Below are positions 2,216-63,014 of a stretch of DNA of 64,000 nt, piece by piece. Each line of letters starts with the position of its first letter. The stretch's first letter is position 1. This stretch comes from Betaproteobacteria bacterium (GTDB lineage: Bacteria > Pseudomonadota > Gammaproteobacteria > Burkholderiales > SG8-41): assembly GCA_900299145.1 (NCBI GenBank), contig OMIN01000087.1:1-64000 (forward strand), in the 5' to 3' direction. The position numbers were made by a program, and so were the translations under genes. The notes under the pieces are model-generated. The model saw only the letters and a list, made by a program, of their open reading frames with translations, made no database searches and was not told the DNA's origin.

Positions 2216-2233
2216 AAATAAAAACAGATACTT
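2216..2233 (-). repeat. AT-rich dispersed motif, copy 1
   Basis: Read on the minus strand this is AAGTATCTGTTTTTATTT, matching AASTATYTGWTTTTATT at all 17 positions. It lies in the gap between the divergent VIT/VWA gene and the esterase. Nothing else is recognisable in the 2133-2396 gap. Confidence 0.75.
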
Positions 2234-2396
2234 GCAGCAAATCTACACGAGCCATCGAAATTCGACTGACTGGCAAGGGTTGGGTTCCCGCCGTAGCTTG
2301 CTGCTGCCGACAGCCGCCCCCACCGCGCGTCGTTGACAGCGCGTCGGTTTAACGTTATTCAAGCGGTACACCCAACTTGCTGCTTCAGGAAATCTC

Positions 2397-3260
2397 ATGC
2401 CCACAAGCTACAACCCCGCCGCCCAATTCGAAATCAAGGTCTGGGATGTCGAATTCCGCAAAACCATCAAGCGCCAGTTGATGGCGCGCATTTACCAACC
2501 CCAAGGCACGGGGCCGTTCCCGGTGCTGCTCGACCTGCACGGCGGGGCGTGGAACAACAAGGATCGCCACGCCAACGCGCCGATGGATGAAGCCATCGCC
2601 AAAAGCGGCGTGCTGGTGGTGGCCATCGACATGACGCAAGCGCCCGAAGCGCCTTACCCCGCGTGCGTGCAGGAAGCGAGCTACGGCATCCGCTGGTTGA
2701 AATCCAAAGCCATCGAATGGAACGGCGATTCCGCCACACTGGGCGTGCTGGGCAGTTCCAGCGGCGGCCACGTGGCGCAGCTGTTGGGTATGCGGCCCAA
2801 CGATGGGCGCTACAACGTGCATGCACTGCCGGGCGCGCCAGGCATTAATTCGCGCGTGGCGTATATTGCAACGCGTTCGCCGATCAGTGATCCGTTTGCA
2901 CGCTTCAAGCAGGCCGAGAAAATGAAGCGCGATCACATGATCAAGAACAGCACCACGTTTTTCAACCCTTGGGAATCGATACACGAAGCCAACCCGCAGG
3001 AAATGCTCGATCGTGGCGAGAAAGTCGAGCTGCCACCGCTGCTCATCATGCAGGGCGGCCTCGACGACAATGTGATTCCGGTGATACAGGAAAAATTTTC
3101 CGCGGCGTATCGCAAGGCGGGCGGCCACTGTCAATACGAGTTGTACGAAGGCTGCTCACACGAATGGGTGGCGGAGCCGTGTGAGGCCACCACGCGTGCG
3201 CAAAATATGGTGAAGGGCTTTATCGCCGAGCAGTTGGCGGCCGGACGCAAGGCAATCTAA
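2397..3260 (+). CDS. alpha/beta hydrolase, carboxylesterase-like
   Basis: A 287-residue cytoplasmic alpha/beta hydrolase of the BD-FAE/hormone-sensitive-lipase type, probably a carboxylesterase. The oxyanion-hole motif HGGAW is at residues 48-52. The nucleophile elbow G-S-S-S-G puts the catalytic Ser at about 121. The acid is in GGLDDNVIP (Asp223/224) and the base is His255 in CSHEW. No signal peptide is present. The ATG at 2397 follows AGGAAA by a short spacer. It stands alone, divergent from the VIT/VWA gene, so the substrate cannot be inferred from its neighbours. Confidence 0.85.
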   Translation: MPTSYNPAAQFEIKVWDVEFRKTIKRQLMARIYQPQGTGPFPVLLDLHGGAWNNKDRHANAPMDEAIAKSGVLVVAIDMTQAPEAPYPACVQEASYGIRWLKSKAIEWNGDSATLGVLGSSSGGHVAQLLGMRPNDGRYNVHALPGAPGINSRVAYIATRSPISDPFARFKQAEKMKRDHMIKNSTTFFNPWESIHEANPQEMLDRGEKVELPPLLIMQGGLDDNVIPVIQEKFSAAYRKAGGHCQYELYEGCSHEWVAEPCEATTRAQNMVKGFIAEQLAAGRKAI

Positions 3261-3287
3261 AATAACAACCGCCCGGCAGGGCATTGT

Positions 3288-3304
3288 AACTATTTGTTTT
3301 TATT
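3288..3304 (+). repeat. AT-rich dispersed motif, copy 2
   Basis: AACTATTTGTTTTTATT is a perfect consensus copy. A second T-rich stretch (GTTTTACC) follows after four bases. It sits 28 bp upstream of the lectin-like gene start, downstream of the esterase stop. Confidence 0.8.
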
Positions 3305-3331
3305 ATAGTTTTACCATAACTGGAGGAAGTG

Positions 3332-4000
3332 ATGAATCAATCAGGCGCAGTCAAAGCAGCAGTGTTGGGTGTCGCGACATTGTCGTTGAGTGTCGCAAGT
3401 GGCGTGTATTCACAACAGGCCGCGCCGGAAATGTCGTTCTTCATTACCAGCGTGGGTTCGGGCAAAGGTGCGGATCTCGGCGGCATCGAGGGCGCGGATC
3501 GCCATTGCCAGAACCTTGCGGCGGCGGCGGGCGCGGGCAAGAAAACCTGGCGCGCCTATCTCAGCACCACGGGTTCGCCGTCTGTCAACGCGCGTGACCG
3601 CATTGGCAAAGGCCCGTGGTACAGCAGCGAGGGGCGCCTCATCGCTCGCAGCGTCGACGAACTGCACACCGTGAACAACATTAACCGTCTGGTGGCAAAG
3701 GACGAAAAAGGCCAGATCGTCAAAGGCCGCGGCGACCGCCCCAACACGCACGACATTCTCACCGGCTCCATGCCGGACGGGCGCGCATCGGCGGCGAAGG
3801 AAGACACCACCTGCGGCAATTACACGAAGAGCACCGATGGCGCCGGCGCCGTGCTACTGGGGCATCACGACCGTTCCGGCTTGCGCGACGACGAACCGTC
3901 ACGTTCATGGAATTCCTCGCACCCATCGCGCGGCTGCAGCCAGGCCAATCTGGTAGCCACCGGCGGCGCCGGCTTGTTCTATTGTTTCGCGGTGAATTGA
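3332..4000 (+). CDS. secreted lectin-like protein
   Basis: A 222-residue exported protein. A signal peptide covers about residues 1-28 (hydrophobic AAVLGVATLSLSVASGV, then YSQQA). The rest resembles the bacterial C-type-lectin/endostatin-like fold: FFITS near the start, then G-ADRHCQ, AYLST, RDRIGKGPWYS, NTHDILTGS, TCGNYT, SWNSSHPSRGC and FYCFAVN at the end. Cysteine pairs in that order are typical of the fold. I chose the ATG at 3332, which has GGAGG five bases upstream, rather than the GTG one codon earlier. Ligand unknown. A single gene without an obvious operon. Confidence 0.7.
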   Translation: MNQSGAVKAAVLGVATLSLSVASGVYSQQAAPEMSFFITSVGSGKGADLGGIEGADRHCQNLAAAAGAGKKTWRAYLSTTGSPSVNARDRIGKGPWYSSEGRLIARSVDELHTVNNINRLVAKDEKGQIVKGRGDRPNTHDILTGSMPDGRASAAKEDTTCGNYTKSTDGAGAVLLGHHDRSGLRDDEPSRSWNSSHPSRGCSQANLVATGGAGLFYCFAVN

Positions 4001-4047
4001 TCGCCTCCTTTTTCCACCGCATTGCAAACCCTGGGCGCCACTGACCC

Positions 4048-4913: not shown

Positions 4914-4994
4914 CACTTGTCGCGGCAACCTTGATGTAAACTGTTGTTTTAATTGCCTAATTTACAAGAGCAGCCGCAGGCTTGCCAGCACCGC

Positions 4995-5998: not shown

Positions 5999-7660
5999 TC
6001 AATCCTTCATCAACGCAAACGTCCACACTGACCCGCCGGTGGGTATCACCGCACCCGCCGAGCGGCTGGGGTTGCTGCCGCCACGGCCCGACAGCACGGT
6101 GACGTACTGCTGGCCCTTGTGCGTGTAGGTGATGACCGGCGCGTTAATGCTGGAGCCGGTTTTGAATTGCCACAGTTGCTTGCCGGTTTCCTGATCGAGC
6201 GCGATGACTTCGCCGGTGAGCTTTCCGGTAAACAGCAAGCCGCCGTCGGTGCCGAGCGTACCCGCCGACACCGCAAAATCACGCAGCGGAATCTTCCACG
6301 CGGTTTTCCCGGTGAGCGGGTTCATCGCCACATGATAGCCGGTGATTTCGGGAATCTTCGAGCTGGTTTCGATACCGGTGTAGCCCGAACCGATCACCAG
6401 CTTTTCGTCGACGAACTTCATGACGCGGAAGATTTCCCACGAGTTCAGATACAGCATGCCGGTGCGCGGATTGAACGCAGACAGCGAGGCATTGGTGCCC
6501 AGCCGCGGATTCAGATCGATGGTTTCGCCTTTCACTGCCTTGTCATAGAGATCGGTCAGAACGGGGCGGCCGGTTTTCAGATCAATGTATTTGGCCCAGT
6601 TTTGCGCGGTGAACGGGTGCGCGGCAATGGGTTTGCCGTTGGTGCGGTCGAGCACGTAAACAAAGCCATTCTTATTGACGTTAATCAGCACCTTGCGCGG
6701 CTTGCCGTCAATTTGAATGTCAGCGACGATGTTTTCAGCCGTAGCGTCGTAATCGTAGCTGTCGTTTGGCATGAACTGGTAGTACCACACCATCTCGCCG
6801 GTCTTGGGGCGTATCGCCAGCACGCTGGCGGCGAACAGGCTATCCATGCCCGCGCGGTATTTCGGGTTGTACGGCTCGGCATTGCCGGTGCCGACGAACA
6901 CCAGGTCCAGGTCTGGATCGTAGGTCACCGGCTGCCAAGTCGCCGCACCGCCGTATTTCCACGCGTCGGGCAATTCCTTGTTCGGCCACGTCTCCGAACC
7001 TGGCTCGCCCGGCGCGGGCACTGTCCAGCGGCGCCACAGTTGCTTGCCGGTGTCAGGGTCGTAACCATCGATGAAGCCGCGCGCGGTGCGGTCGCCGCCC
7101 GCCACGCCTGAAATCAGCACGCCGTTGACGATGGTGGGCTGCACAATGCCGCCGTAGCTTTCCTTCCATTCGCCGAATTTGGTTTTCCAGATTTCCTTGC
7201 CGGTTTTCATATCGAGCGCGGCGACGTGCCCGTCGATGTTTTGCCGGTACAGCTTGCCGTTATAGATCGTCGCGTGGCCGCGCAGATACGCGCCGCCGGT
7301 GGTCACGCGCAGCGCAGCACGGTCGTACGTCACAGGTGTGCGCCAGATTTGCCGGCCAGTGGCGATGTCGATGGCGAACGTCCAGTTGCCGTTCACCACG
7401 TACATCACGCCGTTGTAGACCGTGGGCTGCGACAATTCGCCCATGTCGTTCGCAAGACTGAAATTCCACACCGGCACCAGCCGTTTGACGTTGGACTTGT
7501 TGATCTGATTCAGCGAACTCCAACTGCGCGCGTGATACCCCATGCCGTGCGACAACACGTTGTCGGTGTTCTTGCCGTCGTTCAGAATCTCTTCGGCAGT
7601 CTGCGAAAAACTTGAATTAAAACAAATACTTAGCAATACACCTGCCAGAATCTTTTTCAT
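5999..7660 (-). CDS. PQQ-dependent alcohol dehydrogenase, Ln-type (copy A)
   Basis: A 553-residue periplasmic quinoprotein of the methanol/ethanol dehydrogenase family that oxidises alcohols or aldehydes with PQQ and passes electrons to cytochrome c. Signal peptide about 1-20. Tryptophan-docking repeats (such as ALDMKTGKEIWKT) recur through the propeller. The active site has Asn260 (GTGN), catalytic Asp303 and Asp305 in SYDYD; the second Asp is the lanthanide ligand of XoxF enzymes. The usual Glu ligand is Asp190 (GGDRTARG). The vicinal Cys-Cys is absent (region about 110-125). It is the last gene of the minus-strand run, 140 bp after the cytochrome. The ATG at 7660 follows AGGGAG. Family certain; substrate unknown. 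Confidence 0.9.
   Translation of the reverse strand: MKKILAGVLLSICFNSSFSQTAEEILNDGKNTDNVLSHGMGYHARSWSSLNQINKSNVKRLVPVWNFSLANDMGELSQPTVYNGVMYVVNGNWTFAIDIATGRQIWRTPVTYDRAALRVTTGGAYLRGHATIYNGKLYRQNIDGHVAALDMKTGKEIWKTKFGEWKESYGGIVQPTIVNGVLISGVAGGDRTARGFIDGYDPDTGKQLWRRWTVPAPGEPGSETWPNKELPDAWKYGGAATWQPVTYDPDLDLVFVGTGNAEPYNPKYRAGMDSLFAASVLAIRPKTGEMVWYYQFMPNDSYDYDATAENIVADIQIDGKPRKVLINVNKNGFVYVLDRTNGKPIAAHPFTAQNWAKYIDLKTGRPVLTDLYDKAVKGETIDLNPRLGTNASLSAFNPRTGMLYLNSWEIFRVMKFVDEKLVIGSGYTGIETSSKIPEITGYHVAMNPLTGKTAWKIPLRDFAVSAGTLGTDGGLLFTGKLTGEVIALDQETGKQLWQFKTGSSINAPVITYTHKGQQYVTVLSGRGGSNPSRSAGAVIPTGGSVWTFALMKD
7615..7631 (-). repeat. AT-rich dispersed motif, copy 3 (in signal peptide)
   Basis: Read on the minus strand: AAGTATTTGTTTTAATT, one mismatch to consensus, followed by a second T tract (GTTTTT). 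It lies inside the signal-peptide codons of PQQ dehydrogenase copy A (L-S-I-C-F-N-S). Confidence 0.7.
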
Positions 7661-8129: not shown

Positions 8130-9812
8130 CTAGTCCGGCATCACAGCAAACGTCCACACCGAGCCGCCTTCGGGAACCTTGCCCTGCGTGTAACGTGCCG
8201 ACGATATGCCGCCACGCCCAGACTGCACGCTGACGTATTGCACGCCCTTATGCGTGTAGGTGATGGGCGGCGCGTTAATGCTGGAACCTGTCTTGAAAGA
8301 CCATACCTCCTTGCCGTTGTCGATATCGAGCGCGATCATTTCGCCGGTCAACTTGCCGGTAAACAGCAGCCCGCCGCCGGTGGCAAGCATGCCGGCGGAA
8401 CTCGGCATATCCCACAGTGGCGTTTCCCACACCACTTTGCCGGTGAGCGGCTCGATGGCGCGGTGATGACCGACCGGTTCACCCTTGGGGTTCAAGCCTG
8501 TCGATTCAATGCCAGTGGTGTTGCCGCCGAGGATGTGTTTCACCTCGATGTACTTCAGCACCCGCGCGAAGTTCCAGGTGTTGGCATAAATCAGGCTGGT
8601 GCGCGGATTGAATGCGATCAACGTTGCGTTGGTGCCGCGCGACGGGAACACATCGATGGTTTCGCCTTTCATCGCGCGCTCGTAAAGATCGGTGAACACC
8701 GGCCGTCCAGTTTTCAAGTCGACATGCGAGGCCCAATTCACGTGGACATACTTGTTCGCCGCGATCACTTGGCCGTTGGTGCGATCCAGCACGTACAAAA
8801 AACCACCCTTGTGCGCGCTCACCAGCACCTTGCGCATTTTGCCGTCGATGCGCAGATCGGCGATCATCCATTCGGCGTTGGCGTCAAAGTCATAGGGGTC
8901 ATTGGGGATGGTCTGGTAGTACCACACGATTTCGCCGGTCTTGGGCCGCAGCGCCAGCACGCAGGTGGTGCACAGGCTGTCCATGCCGTCGCGATACCTT
9001 GGGTTGTAGGGCTGCGCGTTGCCGGTGCCTATGTAGACAAGATCCAGCTCCGGGTCGTACGACGCCGCCTGCCACGTTGCACCGCCGCCGTACTTCCATG
9101 CATCGGGCCAGCTCTTGTGCGGCCAGGTTTCCGAGCCTTTTTCACCCGGCGCGGGAATGGTGTAAGTACGCCATAGCCGCTTGCCGGTGTTCGGATCGTA
9201 GCCGTCGACAAAGCCACGCGTGGTGCTGTCACCACCGCTCATGCCCGACACCAGCACACCGTTGAACACTGCGGGCGCCACCACGCCACGGCAGCCTTCG
9301 GTAAACGTTTCGCAGAACTTGGTGCGCCATACTTCCTTGCCGGTTTTCATGTCGAGCGCGACCACGTGGGCGTCGAGCGTCTGCCGGAAAAGCTTGCCTT
9401 CGTAAATCGTTGCAGCGCCACGCATGATCGCACCGGTACTTGCCACGCGTAACGCACCTCGGTCATAGTTCACCGGCGTACGCCAGATCTGTCGGCCCGT
9501 GGCAACGTCGATGGCGAAGGTCCATTCGGCGTTCACCACGTACATTACGCCGTTGTAGACCGTCGGCTGCGCAAGCTCGCCGTTGTTGTTGGCGGTGCTG
9601 AAATGCCACACCGGCACCAGGCGTTTGACGTTCGACTTGTTGATCTGCGCAAGCGGGCTCCATGCCTTCAGGTCGTAGCCCATGCCGAAGTTGAGCACAT
9701 GATCAGTGTTCTTATTACTGCGAATTTCATCCAGCGTTTGGCCCTGCGCACCGCCGCACAGCAGCGCTGAGGCCAAACCGGCAACACAACATAAGTATTT
9801 GATTTTATTCAA
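8130..9812 (-). CDS. PQQ-dependent alcohol dehydrogenase, Ln-type (copy B)
   Basis: A 560-residue paralogue of copies A and C. Asn265 (GTGN), catalytic Asp308 and Asp310 (PYDFD) are present. The Glu metal ligand is replaced by Asp195 (GGDSTTRG), and the vicinal Cys pair is missing. It has unusual extra cysteines: Cys167, Cys174 and a C-T-T-C at 281-284 (not a haem motif, since no His follows). The start is TTG at 9812, behind an ideal GGAGGA at 9820-9825, only 3 bp after the stop of copy C, implying translational coupling. The first codons (N-K-I-K-Y-L) are made by dispersed motif copy 4. A signal peptide covers about residues 5-25. Confidence 0.9.
   Translation of the reverse strand: MNKIKYLCCVAGLASALLCGGAQGQTLDEIRSNKNTDHVLNFGMGYDLKAWSPLAQINKSNVKRLVPVWHFSTANNNGELAQPTVYNGVMYVVNAEWTFAIDVATGRQIWRTPVNYDRGALRVASTGAIMRGAATIYEGKLFRQTLDAHVVALDMKTGKEVWRTKFCETFTEGCRGVVAPAVFNGVLVSGMSGGDSTTRGFVDGYDPNTGKRLWRTYTIPAPGEKGSETWPHKSWPDAWKYGGGATWQAASYDPELDLVYIGTGNAQPYNPRYRDGMDSLCTTCVLALRPKTGEIVWYYQTIPNDPYDFDANAEWMIADLRIDGKMRKVLVSAHKGGFLYVLDRTNGQVIAANKYVHVNWASHVDLKTGRPVFTDLYERAMKGETIDVFPSRGTNATLIAFNPRTSLIYANTWNFARVLKYIEVKHILGGNTTGIESTGLNPKGEPVGHHRAIEPLTGKVVWETPLWDMPSSAGMLATGGGLLFTGKLTGEMIALDIDNGKEVWSFKTGSSINAPPITYTHKGVQYVSVQSGRGGISSARYTQGKVPEGGSVWTFAVMPD
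9793..9809 (+). repeat. AT-rich dispersed motif, copy 4 (at PQQ copy B start)
   Basis: AAGTATTTGATTTTATT is a perfect copy, followed two bases later by ATTTTTATT. It occupies codons 2-7 of PQQ copy B on the opposite strand, immediately after the TTG start. Confidence 0.8.
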
Positions 9813-9815
9813 TTT

Positions 9816-11483
9816 TTATTCCTCCATTAACGCAAACGTCCAGACCGAGCCGCCGCGCGGCCCCATATTACCGGCAAAGCGGTTCGGATTACTGCCACCG
9901 ATACCCGACAATATGGTGACGTATTGCACGCCCTTATGCGTGTAGGTGATCGGCGCGGCGTTGATGCCGGAGCCGGTCTTGAACTGCCAGACCTGCTTGC
10001 CGTTGTCCATGTCGAGCGCGATAAATTCGCCGGTCAGTTTTCCGGTAAACAGCAACCCGCCGCCCGTGGCCAGCATGCCTGCGCTGTTGACCGCATCGTA
10101 AAACGGCACGCTCCACACGTCCTTGCCGGTCAATGGGTCAATCGCCTTGTGAAAACCCTGCGGCTCGCCGGGCGGCGTGGTGAATGTGGTTTCCACGCCG
10201 GTGTAGCCGGAACCCAGATTCAATTTGGCTTCGACAAATTTCATGATGCGCGCCTTGTGCCACGCATTCAGATAGACAAGCCCGGTTTTCGGGTTAAACG
10301 CCGCCAGCGTGGCGTTGGTGCCGCGCGCCGGCCAGAAAGTCACCTGCTCGCCGGCCATCGCCTTTTGCAAAATATCGGTGAGCACCGGCCGGCCGGTTTT
10401 CATGTCGATATGCGTGGCCCACGTCACTTTCACGTACGGATTCGCGGCGATCAACTGGCCGTTCGTGCGGTCCAGCACATAGAGAAAGCCGTTCTTGTGC
10501 GGGTTGATCAGCACCTTGCGCGGTTTGCCTTCCACGGTGATGTCGGCAAGGATGCTTTCCGCCGTGGCGTCGTAGTCGTAACTGTCGTTGGGCACGTACT
10601 GGTAATGCCATACCATTTCACCGGTCTTGGGCCGCAGCGCAATGACGCTCGCGGTATAAAGACTGTCCGCACCCTCACGATACGACGGGTTGTACGGCTC
10701 GGCATTGCCGGTGCCCAGATAAATTAAATCCAGTTGCGGGTCGTAGTTGGCGTACTGCCAGGTCGCGCCGCCGCCATACTTGTAGGCATCCGGTTTACTG
10801 GCATTGGGCCACGTTTCTGAACCTTTTTCACCCGGCGCGGGCACGGTATAGGTGCGCCACAAACGCTTGCCGGTTTCCGGATCGTAACCATCGACGAACC
10901 CGCGCGTGGTACTGTCGCCACCGCCCATGCCCGACACCAGCACCCCATTAGCGATGATGGGTGCGACCACGCCCTTGTAGCCCTCTTTCCACTCGGCGTA
11001 CTTGGTTTTCCACAACTGCTTGCCGGTTTTCATGTCGAGCGCCAGCACATGCGCGTCCAGCGTTTGCCGGAAGAGCTTGCCGTTATAGATCGTCGCCGTG
11101 CCGCGCATCAGCGCGCCGCCGCCTGCCACCCGCAACGCAGCCATGTCATGCCCCGATGGCGTGCGCCAGAGTTGCCGGCCGGTGGCCACATCAATGGCGA
11201 ACGTCCAGTTGCCGTTCACCACATACATCACGCCGTTGTACACCGTGGGCTGCGCGTGCTCGCCCGCCAGATTGGCCAGACTGAAATGCCATACCGGCAC
11301 GAGGCGTTTGACATTCGACTTGTTGATCTGCGCAAGCGGGCTGTACTGCTTCAGGTCGTAGCCCATGCCGAAGTTGAGCACGTTCTCCGGATTCTTGCCG
11401 TTGTTGATCAACTCCTCGGCGGTTTGCGCATGGGCGCAGACACACGCACACGACAGCAGCGCCGTGGCCAGCAATTGCTTCAT
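9816..11483 (-). CDS. PQQ-dependent alcohol dehydrogenase, Ln-type (copy C)
   Basis: A 555-residue periplasmic quinoprotein, the first dehydrogenase gene of the run. Signal peptide 1-20 (ending AHAQ). Asn260, catalytic Asp303 and lanthanide-type Asp305 (SYDYD) are present. Asp190 (GGGDSTTRG) replaces the Glu ligand, and there is no vicinal disulphide. The ATG at 11483 follows GGGGAGATC; the frame runs 15 codons further upstream but without signal-peptide character. It is followed after 3 bp by copy B and preceded on the same strand by a Bug gene (72-bp gap), suggesting one operon for substrate capture and oxidation. Confidence 0.9.
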   Translation of the reverse strand: MKQLLATALLSCACVCAHAQTAEELINNGKNPENVLNFGMGYDLKQYSPLAQINKSNVKRLVPVWHFSLANLAGEHAQPTVYNGVMYVVNGNWTFAIDVATGRQLWRTPSGHDMAALRVAGGGALMRGTATIYNGKLFRQTLDAHVLALDMKTGKQLWKTKYAEWKEGYKGVVAPIIANGVLVSGMGGGDSTTRGFVDGYDPETGKRLWRTYTVPAPGEKGSETWPNASKPDAYKYGGGATWQYANYDPQLDLIYLGTGNAEPYNPSYREGADSLYTASVIALRPKTGEMVWHYQYVPNDSYDYDATAESILADITVEGKPRKVLINPHKNGFLYVLDRTNGQLIAANPYVKVTWATHIDMKTGRPVLTDILQKAMAGEQVTFWPARGTNATLAAFNPKTGLVYLNAWHKARIMKFVEAKLNLGSGYTGVETTFTTPPGEPQGFHKAIDPLTGKDVWSVPFYDAVNSAGMLATGGGLLFTGKLTGEFIALDMDNGKQVWQFKTGSGINAAPITYTHKGVQYVTILSGIGGSNPNRFAGNMGPRGGSVWTFALMEE

Positions 11484-15884: not shown

Positions 15885-15912
15885 TTCCAGGCAGTCGTGG
15901 CGGTTAAATCAC

Positions 15913-15929
15913 AACTATTTGATTTTATT
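15913..15929 (+). repeat. AT-rich dispersed motif, copy 5 (over hydrolase stop)
   Basis: AACTATTTGATTTTATT is a perfect copy, followed by CAAG and AATTTTTT. On the minus strand it encodes the last residues N-K-I-K plus the TAG stop of the hydrolase, in the same reading frame as copy 4. Confidence 0.8.
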
Positions 15930-16754
15930 CAAGAATTTTTTCGCCACCTCGACAAACCCCGGCGGGTTGTCGAGCGTGACGTGATGGTCGCAACCGGCGA
16001 CTTCCATCACTTCAACCTGCGGCGCCAGCGCCCGTACCTGCGCAATGATTTCAGGCGTCACGCGCTGACTGCGGTCGCCCTTCATCAGTAGCGCGGGTAT
16101 CTTGATGTTCCCCCAGCACGGAATCAGATTGCGCCCGATGCGCAGCGCGTAGACGTTGCGGTCGGCCTTGTTGCGCCAACGTCCGTCGTCGAACTGTCGG
16201 CCGGCGTGCCGCGCCAGATGGCCGACGATATCCGGCGTGGCGCTGCTGCCCGCCGGGCGAATCTTGAACCGCCCGACGAATTCGTTCTGATCGGCATAGC
16301 TGTTGCCTTCGCGTGAACCCACGGCGTTCATGGTGGCAATGCGATCCGGCGACATGTTGAGCGACGAATCAATCATGATGAACGCCTTGCAGCGGCCCGG
16401 ATACGTCGATGCGTAAACCGTCGACACCAGCCCGCCCATCGAATGGCCGGCGAGAATGAAATCGCGCAAATCGAGTTTTTCCGTCAGCGCGTGTATGTCC
16501 GCCGCGTAATCATCGTAGGTGTAGCGCGGCGAATCGGAACGATCCCATTCGCTGTCACCGTGGCCGCGCAAATCGGGCGAGAGCACGTGATATTCGTCGG
16601 TCAAACCGTTTGCCACAAAGTCATACCAGTGCCCATTGGCCGCGCTGCCATGGATGCACAGCATGGGTGTTTTGCCGGCCGTGCCGTAATCCTGCGCATG
16701 CAGTTTAAGTCCGTTCACTTCGACGGTGCGGTCGGTGTAGGGGGCGGGTTTCAT
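15915..16754 (-). CDS. alpha/beta hydrolase (copy 2 of tandem pair)
   Basis: A 279-residue alpha/beta hydrolase. The oxyanion loop is HGSAANGHW (35-43), DLRGHGDS is present, the nucleophile elbow GHSMGG has Ser105, and the C-terminal base is in CDHHVTLDNP. It is homologous over its full length to the neighbour at 16780-17655. No signal peptide. The family includes carbon-carbon hydrolases, haloperoxidases and amidases, so the reaction is unresolved. It follows the asparaginase and hydrolase copy 1 on the same strand, 25 bp after the latter, so the three probably form one operon. Confidence 0.85.
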   Translation of the reverse strand: MKPAPYTDRTVEVNGLKLHAQDYGTAGKTPMLCIHGSAANGHWYDFVANGLTDEYHVLSPDLRGHGDSEWDRSDSPRYTYDDYAADIHALTEKLDLRDFILAGHSMGGLVSTVYASTYPGRCKAFIMIDSSLNMSPDRIATMNAVGSREGNSYADQNEFVGRFKIRPAGSSATPDIVGHLARHAGRQFDDGRWRNKADRNVYALRIGRNLIPCWGNIKIPALLMKGDRSQRVTPEIIAQVRALAPQVEVMEVAGCDHHVTLDNPPGFVEVAKKFLNKIK

Positions 16755-18774: not shown

Positions 18775-18790
18775 AATGGCGTCCTCATGT

Positions 18791-18806
18791 AAGCATTTGT
18801 TTTATT
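18791..18806 (+). repeat. AT-rich dispersed motif, copy 6
   Basis: AAGCATTTGTTTTATT is one base shorter than consensus with one substitution, followed by TAATTATTTTTC. It lies 16 bp upstream of the asparaginase start, in the gap to Bug 3. Confidence 0.65.
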
Positions 18807-18842
18807 TAATTATTTTTCGTGACTTCGTGCGCATTGTACTGC

Positions 18843-30746: not shown

Positions 30747-30957
30747 GCCAGATATCCTTGATGAAGGCGGCACATGTCGCGCCGGTTTTTGTTGAATGAG
30801 TCTGTTTTACGTCAGTGAATAGTATCGCGCGAGGCCCCTAAAATGCCATCGGCACTTCCGCCGGACTAAGCACAACGCGTTTTAGCGGTACCGTTGTCGC
30901 GGCTTGACTGGCACAATGATTCGCGCAATGGGCAAATCGCGCACGATAAAAATAATT

Positions 30958-30974
30958 AATGAAAACAATTACTT
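30958..30974 (-). repeat. AT-rich dispersed motif, copy 8 (over Bug stop)
   Basis: Read on the minus strand: AAGTAATTGTTTTCATT, two mismatches, followed by AATTATTTTTAT. It covers the last Lys codon and the TAA stop of Bug 5. Confidence 0.7.
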
Positions 30975-31949
30975 AGCCAATCCAAGCTCCACCAGCACTG
31001 CGCGCAACTCCTGCTGCTGCGCATCCAGAAAACGCCGCGTTTCCGCGCTGTTCATGTACACCGGATCTTGCAGCAGTCGAAGTGCTTCGTTGCGCCATTC
31101 CGGTGTTTGTGTAAGGCGGGAGAATACGTCATCCCAATACGCGATCTGTGCAGCGCTCATGCCTTTAGGGCCGACCACGCCGCGCCAGTTGGCATAGATG
31201 GAATCGTAGCCCTGTTCCTTCCACGTCGGCACATCGGCGAACGCCCCGCTCAAGCGGCGCGGGCCGGAGACAGCGATACCGCGTAACTTGCCGCCCTGTA
31301 TGTGCGCAATCTGGCTCGCCGCGCTGGTGACCATCACATCGACGTGGCCGCCCATCACGCCCGCAATGGATTCGTTGGCGCCCGCGACCACCACCACGCG
31401 CAGTTTCTTGATATCCACGCCGGCGGTTTTCAGGGCCAGCACCGTTGCCAGATGGTTGGAGCCCGCCAGCGCGGTGGACAGGCTGATGCTGACTGCGCCG
31501 GGGTCTTTACGCAGGCGCTCGACGAAATCACGGCCGGATTTGATACCGGAGTCCGCGCGCACCGCAAAGCCGACATACTCGTTGAACAAATGCGCGAGCG
31601 GCGTCATCTCGGTGTGCGGAATCTGCCCGGCGATCATCATCGGACCGGTGATCATGGGTTGCAGACTTAGCGCGATGTAATGTGCGTCACCCGGGTGCTG
31701 GTTAAGATACACGTAACTCAACGAACTGCCGCCGCCGGTCTTATTGACCACACTGCTTGCGAAATCCAGCCCCAGCTTTTCGCGCATCAGCTTTTGCAAC
31801 TGCCGCGCCGTGAGATCGGCGCCGCCGCCTGCCGCAGAACCGACAATGATTTCGACGTTGCGCGTGGGCTTCCAGCCTTGCGCAAGCACCACGCCAGTGC
31901 AGGCTGCCAGTATCAAACCCGCGGCGATGCTTCGTGCGTAGCGCTTCAT
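30969..31949 (-). CDS. Bug/TctC-family periplasmic binding protein 5
   Basis: 326 residues with signal peptide about 1-24 (ending GVVLAQ). It is a divergent Bug: RNVEIIVGSAAGGGADLTAR, VNKTGGGSS (instead of D-N-R-x-G), GVDIKKLRVVVVAGANES, and a C-terminus ending LGLAK. The changed carboxylate-pinning loops suggest a different ligand from the other eight. GAGAGG five bases upstream supports ATG 31949; the 26-codon extension is rejected. Confidence 0.82.
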   Translation of the reverse strand: MKRYARSIAAGLILAACTGVVLAQGWKPTRNVEIIVGSAAGGGADLTARQLQKLMREKLGLDFASSVVNKTGGGSSLSYVYLNQHPGDAHYIALSLQPMITGPMMIAGQIPHTEMTPLAHLFNEYVGFAVRADSGIKSGRDFVERLRKDPGAVSISLSTALAGSNHLATVLALKTAGVDIKKLRVVVVAGANESIAGVMGGHVDVMVTSAASQIAHIQGGKLRGIAVSGPRRLSGAFADVPTWKEQGYDSIYANWRGVVGPKGMSAAQIAYWDDVFSRLTQTPEWRNEALRLLQDPVYMNSAETRRFLDAQQQELRAVLVELGLAK

Positions 31950-32101
31950 GCCGGCCTCTCTGAAAAGCGATTCGCGCAAATTGTAGCATCGCATCACTTC
32001 CATTCGATTGACACCGCGCCGCGCCACTCGCTAAGATGAATTGCCGCCCCATCAACCGATCAACTGTTTACCGATTACTGTTCACCGTTCATCAGCCCCC
32101 C

Positions 32102-36606: not shown

Positions 36607-36925
36607 ACGTGCGCGGCCGACGATTGGCCTCAGAGCGACGGCCGGATTGCTGCACGAAATATCCACGCGGCACGACTGCCGGCAAGTTCGCATTGCGGCG
36701 TTCGCTGCACCGCAACGGGGACGACCAATCATAAATATCTGATTTTTTTAACTATTTTATTTTGGAACCCGGCAGTTCCTGTGGACGCTGTGGCTTGTTA
36801 TCATCGCCGTCTCCATTGATACCCCAGACTTGCCCATTCCCGTTGTGCACGCGCAAGGTACGCAGCTGCTGCACAGCCAACCCATCCCTAATCCTTCACA
36901 GCTCGTATCAGCAAAGCCTTATCCC
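36607..36925. other. 319-bp gap with one dispersed motif
   Basis: Apart from the AT-rich motif at 36733 and a following AT stretch to about 36765, no gene or RNA is recognisable. The short frame that extends the CoxG-like gene upstream to 36830 is not protein-like. Confidence 0.55.
36733..36749 (+). repeat. AT-rich dispersed motif, copy 9
   Basis: AAATATCTGATTTTTTT, two mismatches, directly followed by AACTATTTTATTTTGG, which resembles a partial second unit. It lies in the gap between D-aminoacylase and the CoxG-like gene. Confidence 0.65.
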
Positions 36926-39126: not shown

Positions 39127-39131
39127 AATCG

Positions 39132-39148
39132 AATAAAATCAAATAGTT
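39132..39148 (-). repeat. AT-rich dispersed motif, copy 10
   Basis: Minus strand AACTATTTGATTTTATT, perfect, followed by CGATTTTATA. It lies between the ThDP-enzyme stop (39126) and its terminator, in transcribed but untranslated sequence. Confidence 0.8.
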
Positions 39149-39159
39149 ATAAAGCAAAA

Positions 39160-39190
39160 GCCCTGCGGCGAAAACCGCAGGGCTTTTTTT
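39160..39190 (+). terminator. intrinsic terminator after ThDP-enzyme gene
   Basis: GCCCTGCGG and CCGCAGGGC form a 9-bp stem with loop CGAAAA, followed by seven T; four A on the other side let it work partly for the convergent minus-strand gene. Confidence 0.92.
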
Positions 39191-39682: not shown

Positions 39683-39815
39683 GATGCACCTCACTCGGTT
39701 GTTGGTTGGGGCGCAAATCGTGCGCCCGTGAGACCAAAAACGGCGTGAGGTGGCCGCGCGAGTACGCGGCAGACAGCGGCTTTGTAAGCGGCTGTTACGG
39801 AAAAGCAGTGGTTGT

Positions 39816-39832
39816 AAGTAATTGTTTCTGTT
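39816..39832 (+). repeat. AT-rich dispersed motif, copy 11 (degenerate)
   Basis: AAGTAATTGTTTCTGTT, three mismatches, in the gap between the small exported protein gene and DUF4262. A nearby inverted pair (TTGCGGGATTTGCAA type) overlaps its 3' side. Confidence 0.5.
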
Positions 39833-39935
39833 GCGGGATTTGCAACAGAAAGTTACATCTGCGCCGGTGGGCAGGATGGCAGGTAAGGCGATCTATAATT
39901 ACACCAAGGCCACAAGCCATCCCAACACTATACCG

Positions 39936-47380: not shown

Positions 47381-47385
47381 CGCTG

Positions 47386-50300
47386 ATGAACGACGCTGCC
47401 CAACGCCGCGTGTTTAACGCGCAGGCGCTCGACCCCGCCAACAGCGTAGTGGTGTCGGCGTGCGCGGGCAGCGGCAAGACGTGGCTGTTGGTGTCGCGCA
47501 TTGTGCGCGCACTGCTGGCAGGTGCTGCGCCCGGTGAAATTCTTGCCATTACCTTCACGCGCAAGGCCGCGCGTGAAATGCACACGCGGCTGACCGCGTG
47601 GTTGAAAGCGTTGGCTACCGAAGACGACGCCACCGCGCGCCGCATGCTGCTCGAACGCGAGGTACATCCTCAGCGCGTCGATGCGCTACTGCCCGCTGCG
47701 CGAGGGCTATACGAGACGTTGCTGACCGCGGAACCGGGCATCACCATCACCACGTTTCACAGCTGGTTCTTGCAACTGCTGCGCCGCGCGCCGCTGGACG
47801 CGGGCATTGTGGGCGATGCCACGCTGTCGGAGGAAACCGCCGCGCTGATCACGCAAGCGTGGGAACGCTTTGCCGAACAAACCCTGCGCACGCCCGATAG
47901 CGCCTTGGCGCAGGCGCTCGATCATCTCTTAATGCAGTACGGGCCGGACAACACACAGCGCGTGCTGACGAATTTTCTGGCGCGGCGCGGCGATTGGTGG
48001 GCTTATGCGTACACCGGTGGTGGTGGTGGCGCGGACACTGATGACGATGCGGCCATAGCGCAAGCGCTTGCCACACAGCGCGTGGGCATGACGGTTGCGC
48101 CGGATGAAGATGTGCTCGGAGGGCTGTTCGATAATCCAGCGCTTAAAGGGCAACTATCTGATTTTATTGAGTTTTTACTCAGAAACACGCCGACCGATCA
48201 AGCACTTGGTGCGGCCTTGCGCGAATCGATGGCTGAACCGGACGCCGCGCGCTGGTTCGAGCGCGTGTGGCCGGTGTTTCTAACCACCACCGGCGAGATA
48301 CGCGTGCGCTCGCGCAAGGCCAGCAAGAAGCAGGCAGAGCGCCTGGGCACGGACGATGAAGCGCGCTTCCTGACCATTCATCAACGTGTGGGCGAGCGTT
48401 TTCTCGCCGCACGGGAAGCGCTGGCGTGGCAAACCGGCTATCGCTTCAACGCTGCAGCCCTGCGCTGTGGCGCAGCGTTTGCGCAAACCTACCAAGCGCT
48501 GAAAAACGAACGGCGCGTCATCGACTACACCGACATCGAATGGCACGCGCACCGCTTGTTGAGCAACAGCGAACACGCAACCTATCTCATCTGCAAACTC
48601 GACGCGCGCTATCGGCATGTACTGCTCGACGAGTTTCAGGACACCAATCCGCTGCAGTGGCTGACGCTGCGGCAATGGTTCGACGCCAGCGCCGAAGCCG
48701 ATGCGCGGCCCAGTGTGTTCGTGGTGGGCGACCCGAAGCAGTCGATTTATCGCTTTCGCCGCGCGGAAGCGCGACTTTTCGCACAGGCCACGGACTACTT
48801 GCGGGTGCAATTTAACGCCGTCGTGCTGTCGCAGGATGAATCGCGGCGTTGCGCGCCAGCGGTGCTAGATACGGTGAACCGCGTGTTCGCCAATGAGCCC
48901 GCGTTCGAGGATTACCGCACGCATCAGGCACATCACATTGCCATGCCCGGCCGCATTGAAGTGTTGCCGCTGATCGCCAAAGATGAATCCACGCAAGGCG
49001 AAGCCATCGCCTGGCGCGACCCATTCGACACGCCACTGCTTGAAGCGGAAGACAGCCGCCGCGCGCGCGAGGCGGCGCAACTCGCGCAAGGCATCATGGC
49101 GATGGTGGATCAATGGTGGATCGCCGATGAAAACAACGAACACTCCAGCGGCACCCACGGCCGCCCGGTGCGCTACGGCGACATCATGATCCTCGTGCGG
49201 CGCCGCACGCATCTGGATGTGTACGAAGCGGCGCTGCGCCACGCGGGCATACCGTATGTCACATCGCGTCAGGGCGGGCTGCTCGATACGCTGGAAGTGC
49301 GTGACATGATTGCGCTGCTGGAATTTCTGGTGTCGCCATTTGACAACCTCAAGCTCGCGCACGCGTTGCGCTCGCCGGTGTTTGGTTGCAGCGACGCGGA
49401 TCTGATTGCGATTGCGCGCGGGGTTCGCGAAGAAGCAGGGCTGACGTGGTGGGAAGCGCTGTCGCGCATGGCTGATGGCGAGGCCAGCACCGCACTCGCA
49501 CGCGCCCGGTTTCTAATCACCACCTGGCTCGCACGCGCCGACACGCTGCCGGTGCACGACCAGCTCGACCGCATTTATTTCGAGGCCGATGTGCTCGCGC
49601 GCTATCACGATGCCGTGCCTGCCGCGCTGCGCGGCGCGGTGGCGGCGAATCTCAATGCCTTCATGCGGCGCGCGCTGGATGCCGACGCCGGGCGCTACAT
49701 GAGTCTGCCGCGGTTTGTCGCCGATCTGGCAGCACTCGCCGATGCACCCGCGGTCGAAGCGCCCGACGAAGGCTTGATCAGCGGTGCCGGTGACGCGGTC
49801 GCCATCCACACCGTGCACGGGGCGAAGGGACTGGAAGCGCCCATCGTGTGGCTGCCTGACGCGGCGTCGAGCCGTGAACGCAATCCCGGTTACGAAGTGC
49901 TGCTTGACTGGCCGGCGGACGCCGTGCGCCCCACGCATTTTTCACTGTGGGCGCGCAAGGCCGAACAGACGCCAGCGCAGCGCGCCATCTTCGAAAGCGA
50001 AAGCGAAATTGCGCAGCGCGAAAATCTGAACCTGCTGTATGTGGCGATGACGCGCGCCAAACAGGCGCTGATCGTGAGCGGGATTGAGGCCACAGGCAAT
50101 GGCGATGCGTGGTACGCCAAAATTCGCGCGGCAGTCAGCGCTGGCACGGACGAGGGCTCTGCCGCCGTGGCGTGCGCCGGCGCGATATTGGATCAAAAGA
50201 AATATCAATTAAAACAGTTACTTACACCAACCCCTCCAAAAGCCGAAACCATCGACGCACGACTCAGCCAGCCGCTGCCCACCGGCACGCGCAATGCGCG

Positions 50301-60381: not shown

Positions 60382-60403
60382 ATATCTACCGTGTCATTAA
60401 TGT

Positions 60404-60420
60404 AACTATCTGATTTAAAT
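60404..60420 (+). repeat. AT-rich dispersed motif, copy 16 (over cytochrome start)
   Basis: AACTATCTGATTTAAAT, two mismatches. Its last two bases are the A and T of the ATG start codon of the cytochrome, and it occupies the place of the ribosome-binding site. Confidence 0.7.
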
Positions 60421-60727
60421 GAAAAATTTAATTTCCTTGGGTGGCATTATTTTGCTGGCCGCAACGGCAGTGCACGCCCAACCGTTCACGCCCGAACAAT
60501 TCAAGGTGGGGCAGGATACCTACGCGCGGCATTGTTCGCCGTGCCACGGCCCGAAGATGAAAAACCCGGAAGGCGCGTTTGATCTGCCGACGTTTCCAAA
60601 GGATCAAAAAGAGCGCTTCATGCGTTCGGTGGGTAAAGGCAAAAACAGCATGCCGCCGTGGGAAGGCTTGTTGAAGCCCGAGGAAATCGAAGCGCTGTGG
60701 GCCTACGTCCACACCGGCGACAAATAG
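60419..60727 (+). CDS. class I cytochrome c, partner of PQQ copy D
   Basis: A 102-residue secreted mono-haem cytochrome. Signal peptide 1-21 (LISLGGIILLAATAVHAQ), haem motif CSPCH (39-43), axial Met78 in KNSMPPW. It closely matches the cytochrome at 7801 (PEQ, YARxC, MKNPE, PPWxxxLKPxEIEALWAY). No Shine-Dalgarno is visible: the AT-rich motif runs into the ATG. Probable electron acceptor of PQQ copy D. Confidence 0.88.
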   Translation: MKNLISLGGIILLAATAVHAQPFTPEQFKVGQDTYARHCSPCHGPKMKNPEGAFDLPTFPKDQKERFMRSVGKGKNSMPPWEGLLKPEEIEALWAYVHTGDK

Positions 60728-60751
60728 CCGTTGCCTGCGGCTGCCCTTAAA

Positions 60752-61288: not shown

Positions 61289-61302
61289 GGCAGGGCCTCC
61301 GT

Positions 61303-61938
61303 TTAAAGTGTGCGTACTTGCACCTTGCGCCACTTGATCGGCCCACCCATTGCGCCGTTGACTCCCGCGCCGTATTGCAGCGCGAACGGGCCTTGCGGGA
61401 AGCGGCCATCCTTGACGTTGACTGTCATTACGCCATTCACCCACACGGTGAGCTGCTGACCCTCGGCGGTGATGCGCATGGTGTTCCACTTACCGCCGAC
61501 TTTTTCCTTGAGCGGCACCGGTACCGCCGCCACATCGACTATCGCGCCCGTGCCGTATTTCGGATCAGGGCGAATGTCCCAGATATTCACTTCATACGAC
61601 GTCACCGAGCCGATCTTCGCCGGATCGGTCGAGCGAATGAAAATACCGCTGTTGGTGTCGGTGGCCGCCCAGAACTCGGCGACAACTTCAAAATCCTTGT
61701 AGGAATTTTTGGTCACCAGAAACCCGCCCTTGCCTTTGTCCGCAACCACCAGCCCTTCTTCCACGCGCCAGTTGGCATCGCCCTGCTGCACAAAGTTCTC
61801 CAGCCCCTTGCCGCCTTCGAGCAGCGTCACCCAGCCGCCGGTGGACGGCGTGCTGGCGCAACCGGACAGCGTCAACGCGGCAGCGAGCAGTAACCCGGAT
61901 AACCTCGACAAGTGCGGCAATATTTTCATTTTTTTCAT
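61303..61938 (-). CDS. DUF1080 lipoprotein (3-keto-disaccharide hydrolase-like)
   Basis: A 211-residue lipoprotein. The lipobox LSGC puts the acylated Cys at about residue 27. The DUF1080 concanavalin-like fold is shown by WVTLLEGGKGLENFVQ, WRVEEGLVVADKGKGGFLVT, F-WAATDTNSGIFIRS, GKWNTMRITAEGQQLTVWVNG and a terminal GPIKWRKVQVR. Some relatives hydrolyse 3-keto-glycosides; most are uncharacterised. GGGAGAAG precedes ATG 61938. The AhpD-like gene follows after 14 bp, so the two share an operon. Confidence 0.85.
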   Translation of the reverse strand: MKKMKILPHLSRLSGLLLAAALTLSGCASTPSTGGWVTLLEGGKGLENFVQQGDANWRVEEGLVVADKGKGGFLVTKNSYKDFEVVAEFWAATDTNSGIFIRSTDPAKIGSVTSYEVNIWDIRPDPKYGTGAIVDVAAVPVPLKEKVGGKWNTMRITAEGQQLTVWVNGVMTVNVKDGRFPQGPFALQYGAGVNGAMGGPIKWRKVQVRTL

Positions 61939-62102
61939 TTTGATCTTCTCCCGGAAAGGTTGACGGCACAACCGCCGCTGCGGCAATCATTCTGCACCGA
62001 TGGCACGCCAAGCACAAATGGCAGGTGTACCAACCCATGGTGCTCTCTTTGAACACCGTGCCCCCGCGGCTGCGGTGCGGCTTCAAGGGTCACGGCAGCG
62101 GT

Positions 62103-62984
62103 CTACCCCGCTGAATTACGCCGCGCTTTCGCGACCAGGGCAATCCCCGCCAGTATCATCCCCGCGCCCGCCACGTGATGCACGCCGATGCGTTCATCCA
62201 GAAACATCACGCCCCACAACACGCCGAAAAGCGGGATCAGGTAAGTCACCGTCAGCGTGGGCGCCGCGCCGATTTGCTCGATCAGCCGGAAATACATCAC
62301 GTAGGCTATTGCGGTACACAGCACGCCCAGTGCCGCCACCGAAATCCATGCGCCCGCCGGCGGTGACTCGCGCAGCGGAAACATTGCCATCAACGGCGCC
62401 ATCACCAACGTGGCGACCCACAGCGCGCCCAGCACATTGGAGTACGGATCGGCGATTTTTGCGGTCTGGTTATAGAGGGAAATCGCGCCGTAGAGCATGC
62501 TGGCGGCAAACGCCGCGGCAATCGCCAACACGGGCATTGCCCCCGCATGAAAGTCCTCGCCGCGCACCAGCACCGCCACGCCGACGAAGCCGAGAGCCAA
62601 CCCGGCCAAACCACGCACACCGGGACGCTGACTTTCATGCCCCGCCAAGCGCATCAGTGATAACGCCGTGGCAAACAATGGCGCAGTGGCATTAATGATC
62701 GACAGCAGCGACACGCTCAACGACTGTGCAGCGTAACCCCACAGCACCAGCGGCAGGGCCGCGTAGAAAATGCCGGTGATGACGGCGGGCTTCCACTGAT
62801 TCCCGCGCGGGAGTGATTTTCTGAAACACCGCGCGAAAAGCGTCAGCGTGACGGCCGCGATGCCGATGCGCCCGCCCATCATCATCGCCGGTCCAAACGC
62901 GGGTACCGCGATTTTCATGAACAGAAACGAGGAACCCCAGATCGCACCCAGCGCGATCAGGCTGGCAAGTTGTGCGGGCCGCAA
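62103..62984 (-). CDS. EamA/DMT-family transporter
   Basis: A 293-residue inner-membrane protein with about ten hydrophobic segments in two EamA repeats: LIALGAIWGSSFLFMKIAVP at the start, ALPLVLWGYAAQSLSVSLLS, and, in the second half, SMLYGAISLY and VTYLIPLFGVLWGVMFLDE. EamA proteins export metabolites such as amino acids or nucleosides. The ligand cannot be told. Dispersed motif copy 17 lies 14 bp upstream of the start. Confidence 0.9.
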   Translation of the reverse strand: MRPAQLASLIALGAIWGSSFLFMKIAVPAFGPAMMMGGRIGIAAVTLTLFARCFRKSLPRGNQWKPAVITGIFYAALPLVLWGYAAQSLSVSLLSIINATAPLFATALSLMRLAGHESQRPGVRGLAGLALGFVGVAVLVRGEDFHAGAMPVLAIAAAFAASMLYGAISLYNQTAKIADPYSNVLGALWVATLVMAPLMAMFPLRESPPAGAWISVAALGVLCTAIAYVMYFRLIEQIGAAPTLTVTYLIPLFGVLWGVMFLDERIGVHHVAGAGMILAGIALVAKARRNSAG

Positions 62985-62997
62985 AGACGTTTACCGT

Positions 62998-63014
62998 AAC
63001 TATTTGTTTTTATT
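62998..63014 (+). repeat. AT-rich dispersed motif, copy 17
   Basis: AACTATTTGTTTTTATT, perfect, followed by AATTATTTTC. It lies between the stop of the ccsA-like gene (63024) and the start of the EamA gene (62984). Confidence 0.8.

What the first reader, a model, noticed from the sequence alone, without database searches (positions are those of the whole stretch)
2216..63014. A dispersed AT-rich motif, AASTATYTGWTTTTATT, about 17 copies in 64 kb
Seen: nine copies match the 17-base consensus exactly (2216, 3288, 9793, 15913, 20750, 39132, 46029, 48152 and 62998), and eight more differ by one to three bases or one gap (7615, 18791, 30958, 36733, 39816, 50207, 53053 and 60404). The DNA is GC-rich, so this density is far above chance. 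Most copies are followed by a second T tract about 10-12 bases after the first, so the full unit is near 30 bp. The copies are not palindromic, lie in both orientations (12 plus, 5 minus), and are spread roughly every 4 kb. A short core followed by two AT tracts one helical turn apart is the layout of the Haemophilus uptake signal sequence. Inference: a DNA-uptake signal of a competent Betaproteobacterium, or a site for a nucleoid or chromosome-organising protein. It is not an IS end or a terminator.
Basis: partly seen in the sequence, partly recalled or inferred. Interest (0 to 1): 0.82.

Follow-up and report, generated by a model that had tools for sequence, protein, structure and literature searches.

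The report
Probable new DNA-uptake signal, uncultured Betaproteobacteria
The genome around this window carries more than a thousand copies of one 28-base signal, laid out like the "take up this DNA" tags known from Haemophilus but in an unrelated lineage of uncultured bacteria, so it is probably a newly found DNA-uptake tag, although uptake itself has not been tested.

Summary
All 17 copies are there (chance 0.11). The whole genome holds 1,128 copies at up to 2 mismatches against 2 for the reversed pattern. The full unit is about 28 bp: core TAASTATYTG, a T tract, and a second T tract one helical turn on. Copies show no strand bias, sit mostly between genes or at gene ends, are more evenly spaced than 500 of 500 controls and, in the one 20-kb region tested, persist at orthologous gaps in 12 congeners. 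The motif is abundant in 35 of 74 genomes of the family and in one of 387 sampled from other families of the order. The one congener that nearly lacks it has no ComEC above cut-off. The core matches no uptake sequence I know. Best reading: a third, independently evolved uptake-sequence system, built like the Pasteurellaceae USS. Against it: uptake was not tested, no pilin tested tracks the motif, and motif-free relatives have ComEC too. A chromosome-organising site is the main rival.

The parts
2207..2234 (-). motif unit, between genes
   Evidence: 32.8 bits; exact 17-mer
3287..3314 (+). motif unit, between genes
   Evidence: 40.4 bits; exact 17-mer
4937..4964 (+). additional, weaker motif unit, between genes
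7605..7632 (-). motif unit in N-terminal (signal-peptide-like) codons of a PQQ-dehydrogenase-like gene
   Evidence: 37.5 bits; Pfam PQQ
9792..9819 (+). motif unit at the boundary of two genes
   Evidence: 48.2 bits; exact 17-mer
15912..15939 (+). motif unit antisense over the 3' end of gene 15915-16754
   Evidence: 41.9 bits; exact 17-mer
18790..18817 (+). motif unit, between genes
   Evidence: 44.1 bits
20749..20776 (+). motif unit, between genes
   Evidence: 41.4 bits; exact 17-mer
30948..30975 (-). motif unit overlapping the 3' end of gene 30969-32003
   Evidence: 41.3 bits
33852..33879 (-). additional, weaker motif unit inside a gene, antisense
36732..36759 (+). motif unit, between genes
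   Evidence: 42.9 bits
39122..39149 (-). motif unit, between genes, next to a terminator-like hairpin
   Evidence: 44.4 bits; exact 17-mer; flanks
39815..39842 (+). weak copy, below the 20-bit threshold
   Evidence: 18.8 bits
46028..46055 (+). motif unit in frame inside a PD-(D/E)XK nuclease gene (AddB-like, name recalled); first base C instead of T avoids a stop codon
   Evidence: 42.3 bits; exact 17-mer; Pfam PDDEXK_1
48151..48178 (+). motif unit in frame inside a UvrD-like helicase gene (AddA-like, name recalled); first base C
   Evidence: 37.3 bits; exact 17-mer; Pfam
50197..50224 (-). motif unit antisense inside the same helicase gene
   Evidence: 43.5 bits
53052..53079 (+). motif unit just before a TctC-receptor gene
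   Evidence: 37.5 bits; Pfam TctC
60403..60430 (+). motif unit at a predicted gene start
   Evidence: 43.4 bits
62997..63024 (+). motif unit in a short gap between genes
   Evidence: 49.9 bits; exact 17-mer

Best explanation
The motif is a self-DNA uptake sequence. A DNA receptor on a competence type IV pilus binds the core TAASTATYTG; the two phased T tracts give a bend or rigidity that helps the DNA enter the outer-membrane pore; ComEC then imports one strand. Fragments bearing the motif enter more often, recombine into the chromosome and so spread the motif (drive) wherever it does little harm: gene gaps, stop codons and signal-peptide codons. Shown here: abundance, layout, distribution, conservation, presence of ComEC and minor pilins. 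Inferred: binding, preferential uptake, drive, and that the receptor is a pilus protein at all.
For: 1,128 copies against 2 control; about 1,580 extrapolated from 133 in 463 kb, with about 40 bits per site where 12.8 bits would locate that many (sites were chosen by score, which inflates the figure). No strand bias: 64 on the G-rich and 69 on the C-rich strand; neighbouring sites 57 same, 55 opposite. 58 of 133 wholly intergenic against 8.5% expected, and 42 more overlap a gene end. Spacing more even than 500 of 500 gap-placed controls. In one 20-kb region a motif is kept in 29 of 37 orthologous gaps where the genome has one and found in 7 of 97 where it has none. 35 of 74 family genomes have 30 or more copies; 35 of the other 39 have 0-8, G009 4, and the three of g8 9-18. 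ComEC over cut-off in G000 and 12 of 13 congeners; the exception, G009, has 4 copies. Layout as published for Pasteurellaceae: core, AT segment, second AT segment centred 12 positions on (PMC1626085, passages).
Against: No uptake data. No receptor: FimT differs widely among motif-bearing congeners and is closer in some motif-free genomes; the C28 pseudopilin is in motif-free genomes and missing from motif-bearing G075. ComEC is also in motif-free relatives, so competence genes do not predict the motif; in G002 ComEC has an in-frame stop and in G011 it is in two pieces although both have many copies. G009 is a single case with atypical G+C (48% counting Ns, 58 kb). Sites lie opposite to the nearest gene more often than along it (80 against 53), which uptake does not predict. 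PilQ, PilT, ComEA and DprA were not searched. Several tests rest on a home-made gene finder and one 20-kb region.
Confidence: 0.76

Rival explanations
1. A binding site for a nucleoid or chromosome-organising protein, spaced about every 3.5 kb to structure the chromosome.
For: Even spacing beyond gap-placed controls, intergenic preference, AT-rich phased tracts, conservation at orthologous positions. Karlin and others once read the spacing of Haemophilus USS this way (cited in PMC1939737, passages; the same paper disputes it).
Against: About 40 bits per site is far more than site finding needs. Patchy distribution: absent from most genera of the same family and present in one genome of another family. 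No strand bias, not palindromic. G009 has neither motif nor ComEC over cut-off.
Confidence: 0.13
2. A regulatory element acting on transcription or mRNA (promoter element, operator, terminator, or RNA element in signal-peptide codons).
For: Some copies lie just before genes; 8 of 133 are sense copies in N-terminal codons, six of which can encode a signal-peptide-like run. Orientation to genes is not random: 80 opposite, 53 along the nearest gene; 29 antisense against 4 sense at 3' ends.
Against: Per kb the density is lowest in divergent gaps (1.1) and highest in convergent ones (3.1), though the share of gaps with a site differs little (21, 24 and 29% for divergent, tandem, convergent). Both orientations occur; no close inverted pairs, 1 of 112 spacings under 300 bp; over a thousand copies. 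The 3'-end bias may follow from stop codons built into the motif (inference).
Confidence: 0.04
3. A dispersed mobile repeat (MITE, REP, IS end) that multiplied by transposition.
For: Many copies, patchy distribution among genera.
Against: Flanks carry about 0 bits; copies inside genes in one sense frame avoid the stop with C at the first base in 3 of 4 cases; spacing is even, not clustered; one site keeps its position in 12 of 12 congeners whose DNA there is 73-81% identical; each of the 80 listed viral loci had a single match.
Confidence: 0.02
4. An uptake sequence that was functional in an ancestor but is now a relic in this species.
For: Published uptake sequences persist where competence genes were recently inactivated in some Pasteurellaceae (PMC1626085, passages). 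ComEC is interrupted or split in two motif-bearing congeners.
Against: In the searched genome ComEC is one open frame over cut-off, and sites are sharp: 135 against 0 reversed-control hits at 20 bits, 143 against 6 at 16 bits.
Confidence: 0.05

Closest known systems
Uptake signal sequence (USS) of Pasteurellaceae, Hin type AAGTGCGGT and Apl type ACAAGCGGT
   Same: About 9-10 bp core followed by an AT segment and a second T-rich segment about one helical turn on; hundreds to thousands of non-palindromic copies on both strands; bias to gene termini; even spacing noted by Karlin and others (PMC1626085, PMC7811141 and PMC1939737, passages; PMC2346458, abstract and findings section).
   Different: The core sequence is unrelated; the hosts are GC-rich uncultured Betaproteobacteria; the preference for gene gaps is strong, while many Haemophilus USS are intragenic (PMC2346458); no paired copies forming terminators; receptor unknown. 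PMC1939737 also says USS are less even than compaction would need.
DNA uptake sequence (DUS) of Neisseriaceae and its dialects, receptor ComP
   Same: Family-restricted, copy number in the hundreds to thousands, variation of favoured bases between relatives (PMC3630211, passages).
   Different: The DUS is a 10-12 base sequence without flanking AT motifs (PMC1626085, passage); no covarying pilin was found here; the motif-free relatives sampled show no replacement dialect at similar density.
Chromosome-organising sites (FtsK KOPS, Chi, matS, Noc and SlmA sites, parS; all recalled)
   Same: Dispersed, conserved short DNA sites.
   Different: KOPS and Chi are strand-biased, the others palindromic and fewer (recalled); here 64 against 69 and not palindromic.

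Membership tests
Self-DNA uptake sequences (general class) | Hundreds to thousands of copies, far above chance, on both strands | tested here: met
   577 and 551 against 1 and 1
Self-DNA uptake sequences (general class) | No replication-strand bias | tested here: met
   64 on G-rich, 69 on C-rich strand, judged from the local skew of 21 stretches, several with weak skew; adjacent pairs 57 and 55
Self-DNA uptake sequences (general class) | Host has a competence DNA-import channel | tested here: met
   ComEC in G000, 368.8 bits against cut-off 190
Self-DNA uptake sequences (general class) | Type IV pilus with minor pilins | tested here: inconclusive
   11 prepilin-like genes; PilV over its cut-off, GspH/FimT-like and PilA-like matches. 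PilQ, PilT, PilB were not searched
Self-DNA uptake sequences (general class) | Motif-dependent preferential DNA uptake | not testable with these tools
   needs a competent isolate
Self-DNA uptake sequences (general class) | Cognate surface receptor whose variation tracks the motif | tested here: inconclusive
   FimT and one pseudopilin do not track it; the wider pilin comparison was incomplete; non-pilins not tested
Pasteurellaceae USS | Core AAGTGCGGT or ACAAGCGGT | tested here: not met
   core is TAASTATYTG
Pasteurellaceae USS | Two AT segments 3' of the core, centres about 12 bp apart | tested here: met
   tracts at positions 10-17 and 21-27, centres about 10.5 bp apart
Neisseriaceae DUS | GCCGTCTGAA-type sequence | tested here: not met
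   logo
Replication-strand motifs (KOPS, Chi) | Strong leading-strand bias | tested here: not met
   64 against 69
Intrinsic terminators | Inverted repeat plus T run | tested here: not met
   not palindromic; 1 of 112 spacings under 300 bp
Transposable repeats | Conserved flanks or element body | tested here: not met
   about 0 bits outside positions -8 to 29

The most novel reading that the evidence does not exclude
A third, independently evolved uptake-sequence system exists in environmental Betaproteobacteria, and one 28-bp password is shared across family borders: several genera of one family and a genome of another family (G452) carry the same core and second tract. Recognition, or the receptor gene, would then have moved between families and opened a private gene-exchange network.
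Probability: 0.35. Interest if true: 0.9.

Novelty: new member of a known kind. Interest (0 to 1): 0.77.

Why it matters
Strong uptake preferences are described for species of two families, Pasteurellaceae and Neisseriaceae, which live mainly on mucosal surfaces (PMC7811141, passages). A third, unrelated lineage, apparently of lakes and groundwater (judged only from the record titles of relatives), would show that the trait does not need host-DNA-rich habitats and that the layout of core plus phased AT tracts arises repeatedly. The patchy pattern (35 of 74 genomes, one near-absence together with ComEC, one cross-family case) gives natural gains and losses for finding the receptor and for testing drive against selection.

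Tried and rejected
Dialects: k-mer scans of stretches from motif-free family members gave no comparable motif in G016, G017 and G033 (48-68 kb each) or in 11 named motif-free loci (184 kb; shared ComEC genes give some words there). Repeats in G015 and G021 were not followed. Such short samples would miss a sparse motif: in 100 kb of motif-bearing G018 the motif was not among the top words either.

Receptor screen: FimT (alignment), the C28 pseudopilin and a comparison of 98 pilin ORFs from 13 genomes, printed for G452 and G006 only. Only 30 pilin loci were fetched for the 8 genomes, so the motif-free side is incomplete. The C28 pseudopilin at first seemed confined to motif-bearing genomes; the family-wide search refuted that: 66 of 74 genomes have it at E 1e-20 or better (71 at 1e-3), it is missing from G009 but also from motif-bearing G075. 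One pilin of G452 (contig C13) had as its only matches pilins of motif-bearing G019 (49%) and G007 (36%), but motif-rich G000 and G006 showed no counterpart: a lead, not a finding.

Mobile-DNA depletion: of five motif-free stretches over 7.5 kb two have lower G+C; the genes of the one listed look mixed, so nothing is claimed.

Tree caveat: 58 of 80 named loci plus the genome's own ComEC were given to the tree; rows L121, L164 and L172 appear out of frame and misplaced; L135 (one weak match) was labelled motif-free.

Full report
OBSERVATION. All 17 copies exist where stated, 9 of them exact; dinucleotide shuffles give 0.11. In the 5.51-Mb draft genome that holds the window (G000, 158 contigs) the 17-mer occurs 577 times on one strand and 551 on the other at up to two mismatches, while the pattern read backwards occurs once on each. 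A weight matrix trained on 463 kb (window plus 20 stretches of 19-20 kb) separates sites from background: 135 hits against 0 in the reversed sequence at 20 bits, 143 against 6 at 16 bits; 133 sites of 20 bits remain after removing overlaps. Motif words top an unsupervised scan of over-represented 9- and 11-mers in G000 and G006, and of 9-mers in G019, but not in 100 kb of G018.

ANATOMY. Aligned sites read T-AA[GC]TAT[TC]TG-[TA]TTT[TA]ATT-(3 bases)-TWTTTT, about 28 bp; information falls to about zero outside positions -8 to 29. The two T tracts have centres about 10.5 bp apart, one helical turn. Published Pasteurellaceae USS have a 9-bp core, an AT segment directly 3' and a second T-rich segment centred 12 positions further on (PMC1626085, passages); their AT tracts affect uptake, possibly through shape (PMC7811141, passages). 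The core here is unrelated to any USS or DUS core I know of. Sites carry about 40 bits, against 12.8 bits needed to mark 1,580 places (inflated somewhat because sites were chosen by score).

WHERE COPIES SIT. With a home-made gene finder (451 genes, 89% coding), 58 of 133 sites are wholly intergenic where 8.5% is expected, and 42 more overlap a gene end; 26 of these overlap a 3' end in antisense. Of the 33 sites fully inside genes, eight are sense copies within 60 nt of the start; six of these encode runs like N-Y-L-F-L-L-I-F-F, a signal-peptide-like core. In the other sense frame that occurs inside genes, the first base is C, which avoids a stop, in 3 of 4 cases (among them window 46028 and 48151). 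Per kb of gap the density is highest in convergent gaps (3.1) and lowest in divergent ones (1.1), but the share of gaps with a site differs little (29%, 24% for tandem, 21%). Sites lie opposite to the nearest gene in 80 cases and along it in 53, and at 3' ends antisense outnumbers sense 29 to 4; stop codons built into the motif may explain the latter. There is no replication-strand bias (64 against 69) and neighbouring sites are as often opposite as same (55 and 57). Spacing is more even than in any of 500 controls placed in gene gaps. Bias to gene ends is reported for Pasteurellaceae USS (PMC2346458, abstract and findings section); even spacing was noted by Karlin and others, though PMC1939737 finds it weaker than compaction would need (passages).

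CONSERVATION. One 20-kb region with nine sites was compared with 12 congeners. Five of its sites lie in gaps that could be compared; orthologous gaps keep a motif in 29 of 37 cases where G000 has one (10 of 12, 12 of 12, 1 of 2, 3 of 3 and 3 of 8), and have one in 7 of 97 cases where G000 has none, six of these in a single gap. Without one weak site that overlaps coding sequence the figure is 19 of 25. The site at the start of a DsbD-like gene (name recalled, not searched) is present in 12 of 12 at the same place and orientation (28-51 bits) while the sequence around it has drifted; the DNA there is 73-81% identical.

DISTRIBUTION. Among 74 genomes held for the family, counts at up to one mismatch are: own genus 13 of 14 with 75-821 copies (G009: 4); g6 1 of 1 (237); g7 21 of 21 (30-220); g8 3 of 3 but weak (9-18); g2, g3, g4, g5 and g9 none above 8 in 35 genomes. 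Among 399 genomes sampled from the order (12 of this family), only one of the 387 others has more than 6: G452, of another family, with 68 and 64 copies and none in the control, while its 11 sampled relatives have 0-2. In 186 kb of G452 the matrix finds 25 sites against 7 in the reversed control at 18 bits (its G+C is 52%); the best show the same core and second tract, and motif words are among the ten most over-represented 10-mers, not 8-mers. A named search with ComEC places the lineage among uncultured Betaproteobacteria, by their titles mostly of lakes and groundwater; the habitat of this very genome is not known. 26 of 80 named loci carry a match at up to 2 mismatches, three of them lone matches outside the motif clades, with none in the reversed control. 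On a ComEC tree of 59 rows the motif needs at least 7 changes (shuffled mean 18.8); it clusters in two main clades separated by motif-free lineages. The labels Bordetella parapertussis on some bins cannot be taken at face value.

MACHINERY. A ComEC match was found in all 37 genomes searched for it (G000 and 36 relatives), over the cut-off in 34. Of the 13 congeners only G009 falls below it, with a weak partial match, and G009 almost lacks the motif; G002 has an in-frame stop in ComEC and G011 has it in two pieces, yet both carry many copies. Motif-free relatives also have ComEC. G000 has 11 prepilin-like genes, among them a minor-pilin operon with PilV and GspH/FimT-like members. No pilin tested tracks the motif: FimT is 75-85% alike in G007 (two pieces) and 59% in G018 but 40% or less in other motif-bearing congeners and 51% in motif-free G016 and G095; the C28 pseudopilin is in 66 of 74 genomes at E 1e-20 or better, motif-free ones included, and missing from motif-bearing G075 as well as from G009. 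One G452 pilin matches only pilins of motif-bearing G019 and G007, but G000 and G006 lack a counterpart and the motif-free set was incomplete. FimT-type minor pilins bind DNA in Legionella, and ComN is the predicted USS receptor (PMC12616744, passages), so pilins were the right place to look; a non-pilin receptor or a small patch within a variable pilin remains possible.

MECHANISM. I infer a surface receptor that binds the core, helped by the bend of two phased T tracts, uptake through the pilus pore, import by ComEC, recombination, and accumulation by biased uptake where the motif does little harm. The excess of information over need, the sharing of positions between species and the harmless locations fit that better than a chromosome-organising site. 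Patchy gain and loss within one family, and the sharing with G452, also fit better, because a chromosome-structure site would be expected in all close relatives. This last step is argument, not measurement.

NOVELTY. Searches of the open-licence literature (listings, with passages or sections of six papers read) showed no paper on this motif and no uptake sequence outside Pasteurellaceae and Neisseriaceae in the rows listed; subscription journals are mostly not held. If uptake is confirmed, this is a new member of a known kind in a third lineage.

Noticed in passing
window 44699-50772: A nuclease and helicase pair resembling AddB and AddA (names recalled; Pfam PDDEXK_1 and UvrD) holds three motif copies within 6 kb. 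Published work reports uptake sequences enriched in genome-maintenance genes (cited in PMC2346458).
   Followed up: no
window 39100-39190: The motif at 39122-39149 follows directly on a terminator-like GC hairpin with a T run.
   Followed up: no
L111:2751-7649: Two adjacent reading frames at the position expected for PilY1 in the minor-pilin operon, about 70 bp apart, look like one interrupted gene; no NCBIfam match. Could be an assembly error.
   Followed up: no
L115, L117, L118, L122, L136, L154, L164: Metagenome bins deposited as Bordetella parapertussis carry ComEC genes that group with uncultured betaproteobacterial bins (L164 misplaced in the tree); the species label is probably wrong.
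   Followed up: partly
L031-L034 (G015) and L043-L046 (G021): Other over-represented words, such as GTGACTGGTAC and CTCAATCCTCA in G015 and GAATCCATTTT and CGTCATTCCCG in G021, perhaps tandem or MITE-like repeats.
   Followed up: no
L224:13082-13885 and L224:3641-4402: A large pseudopilin found in 66 of 74 family genomes at E 1e-20 or better and missing from G009 and G075; on the same contig of the own genome a second large pseudopilin lies beside proteins resembling pilus assembly parts (by eye); function unknown.
   Followed up: partly
L354 (G452 contig C13), L304 (G019), L302 (G007): A minor-pilin pair of G452 whose first pilin matches only pilins of motif-bearing G019 and G007 in the incomplete set compared.
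   Followed up: no
L065 gap 16392-16438: A gap without motif in this genome has one in 6 of 9 congeners, a likely loss.
   Followed up: no
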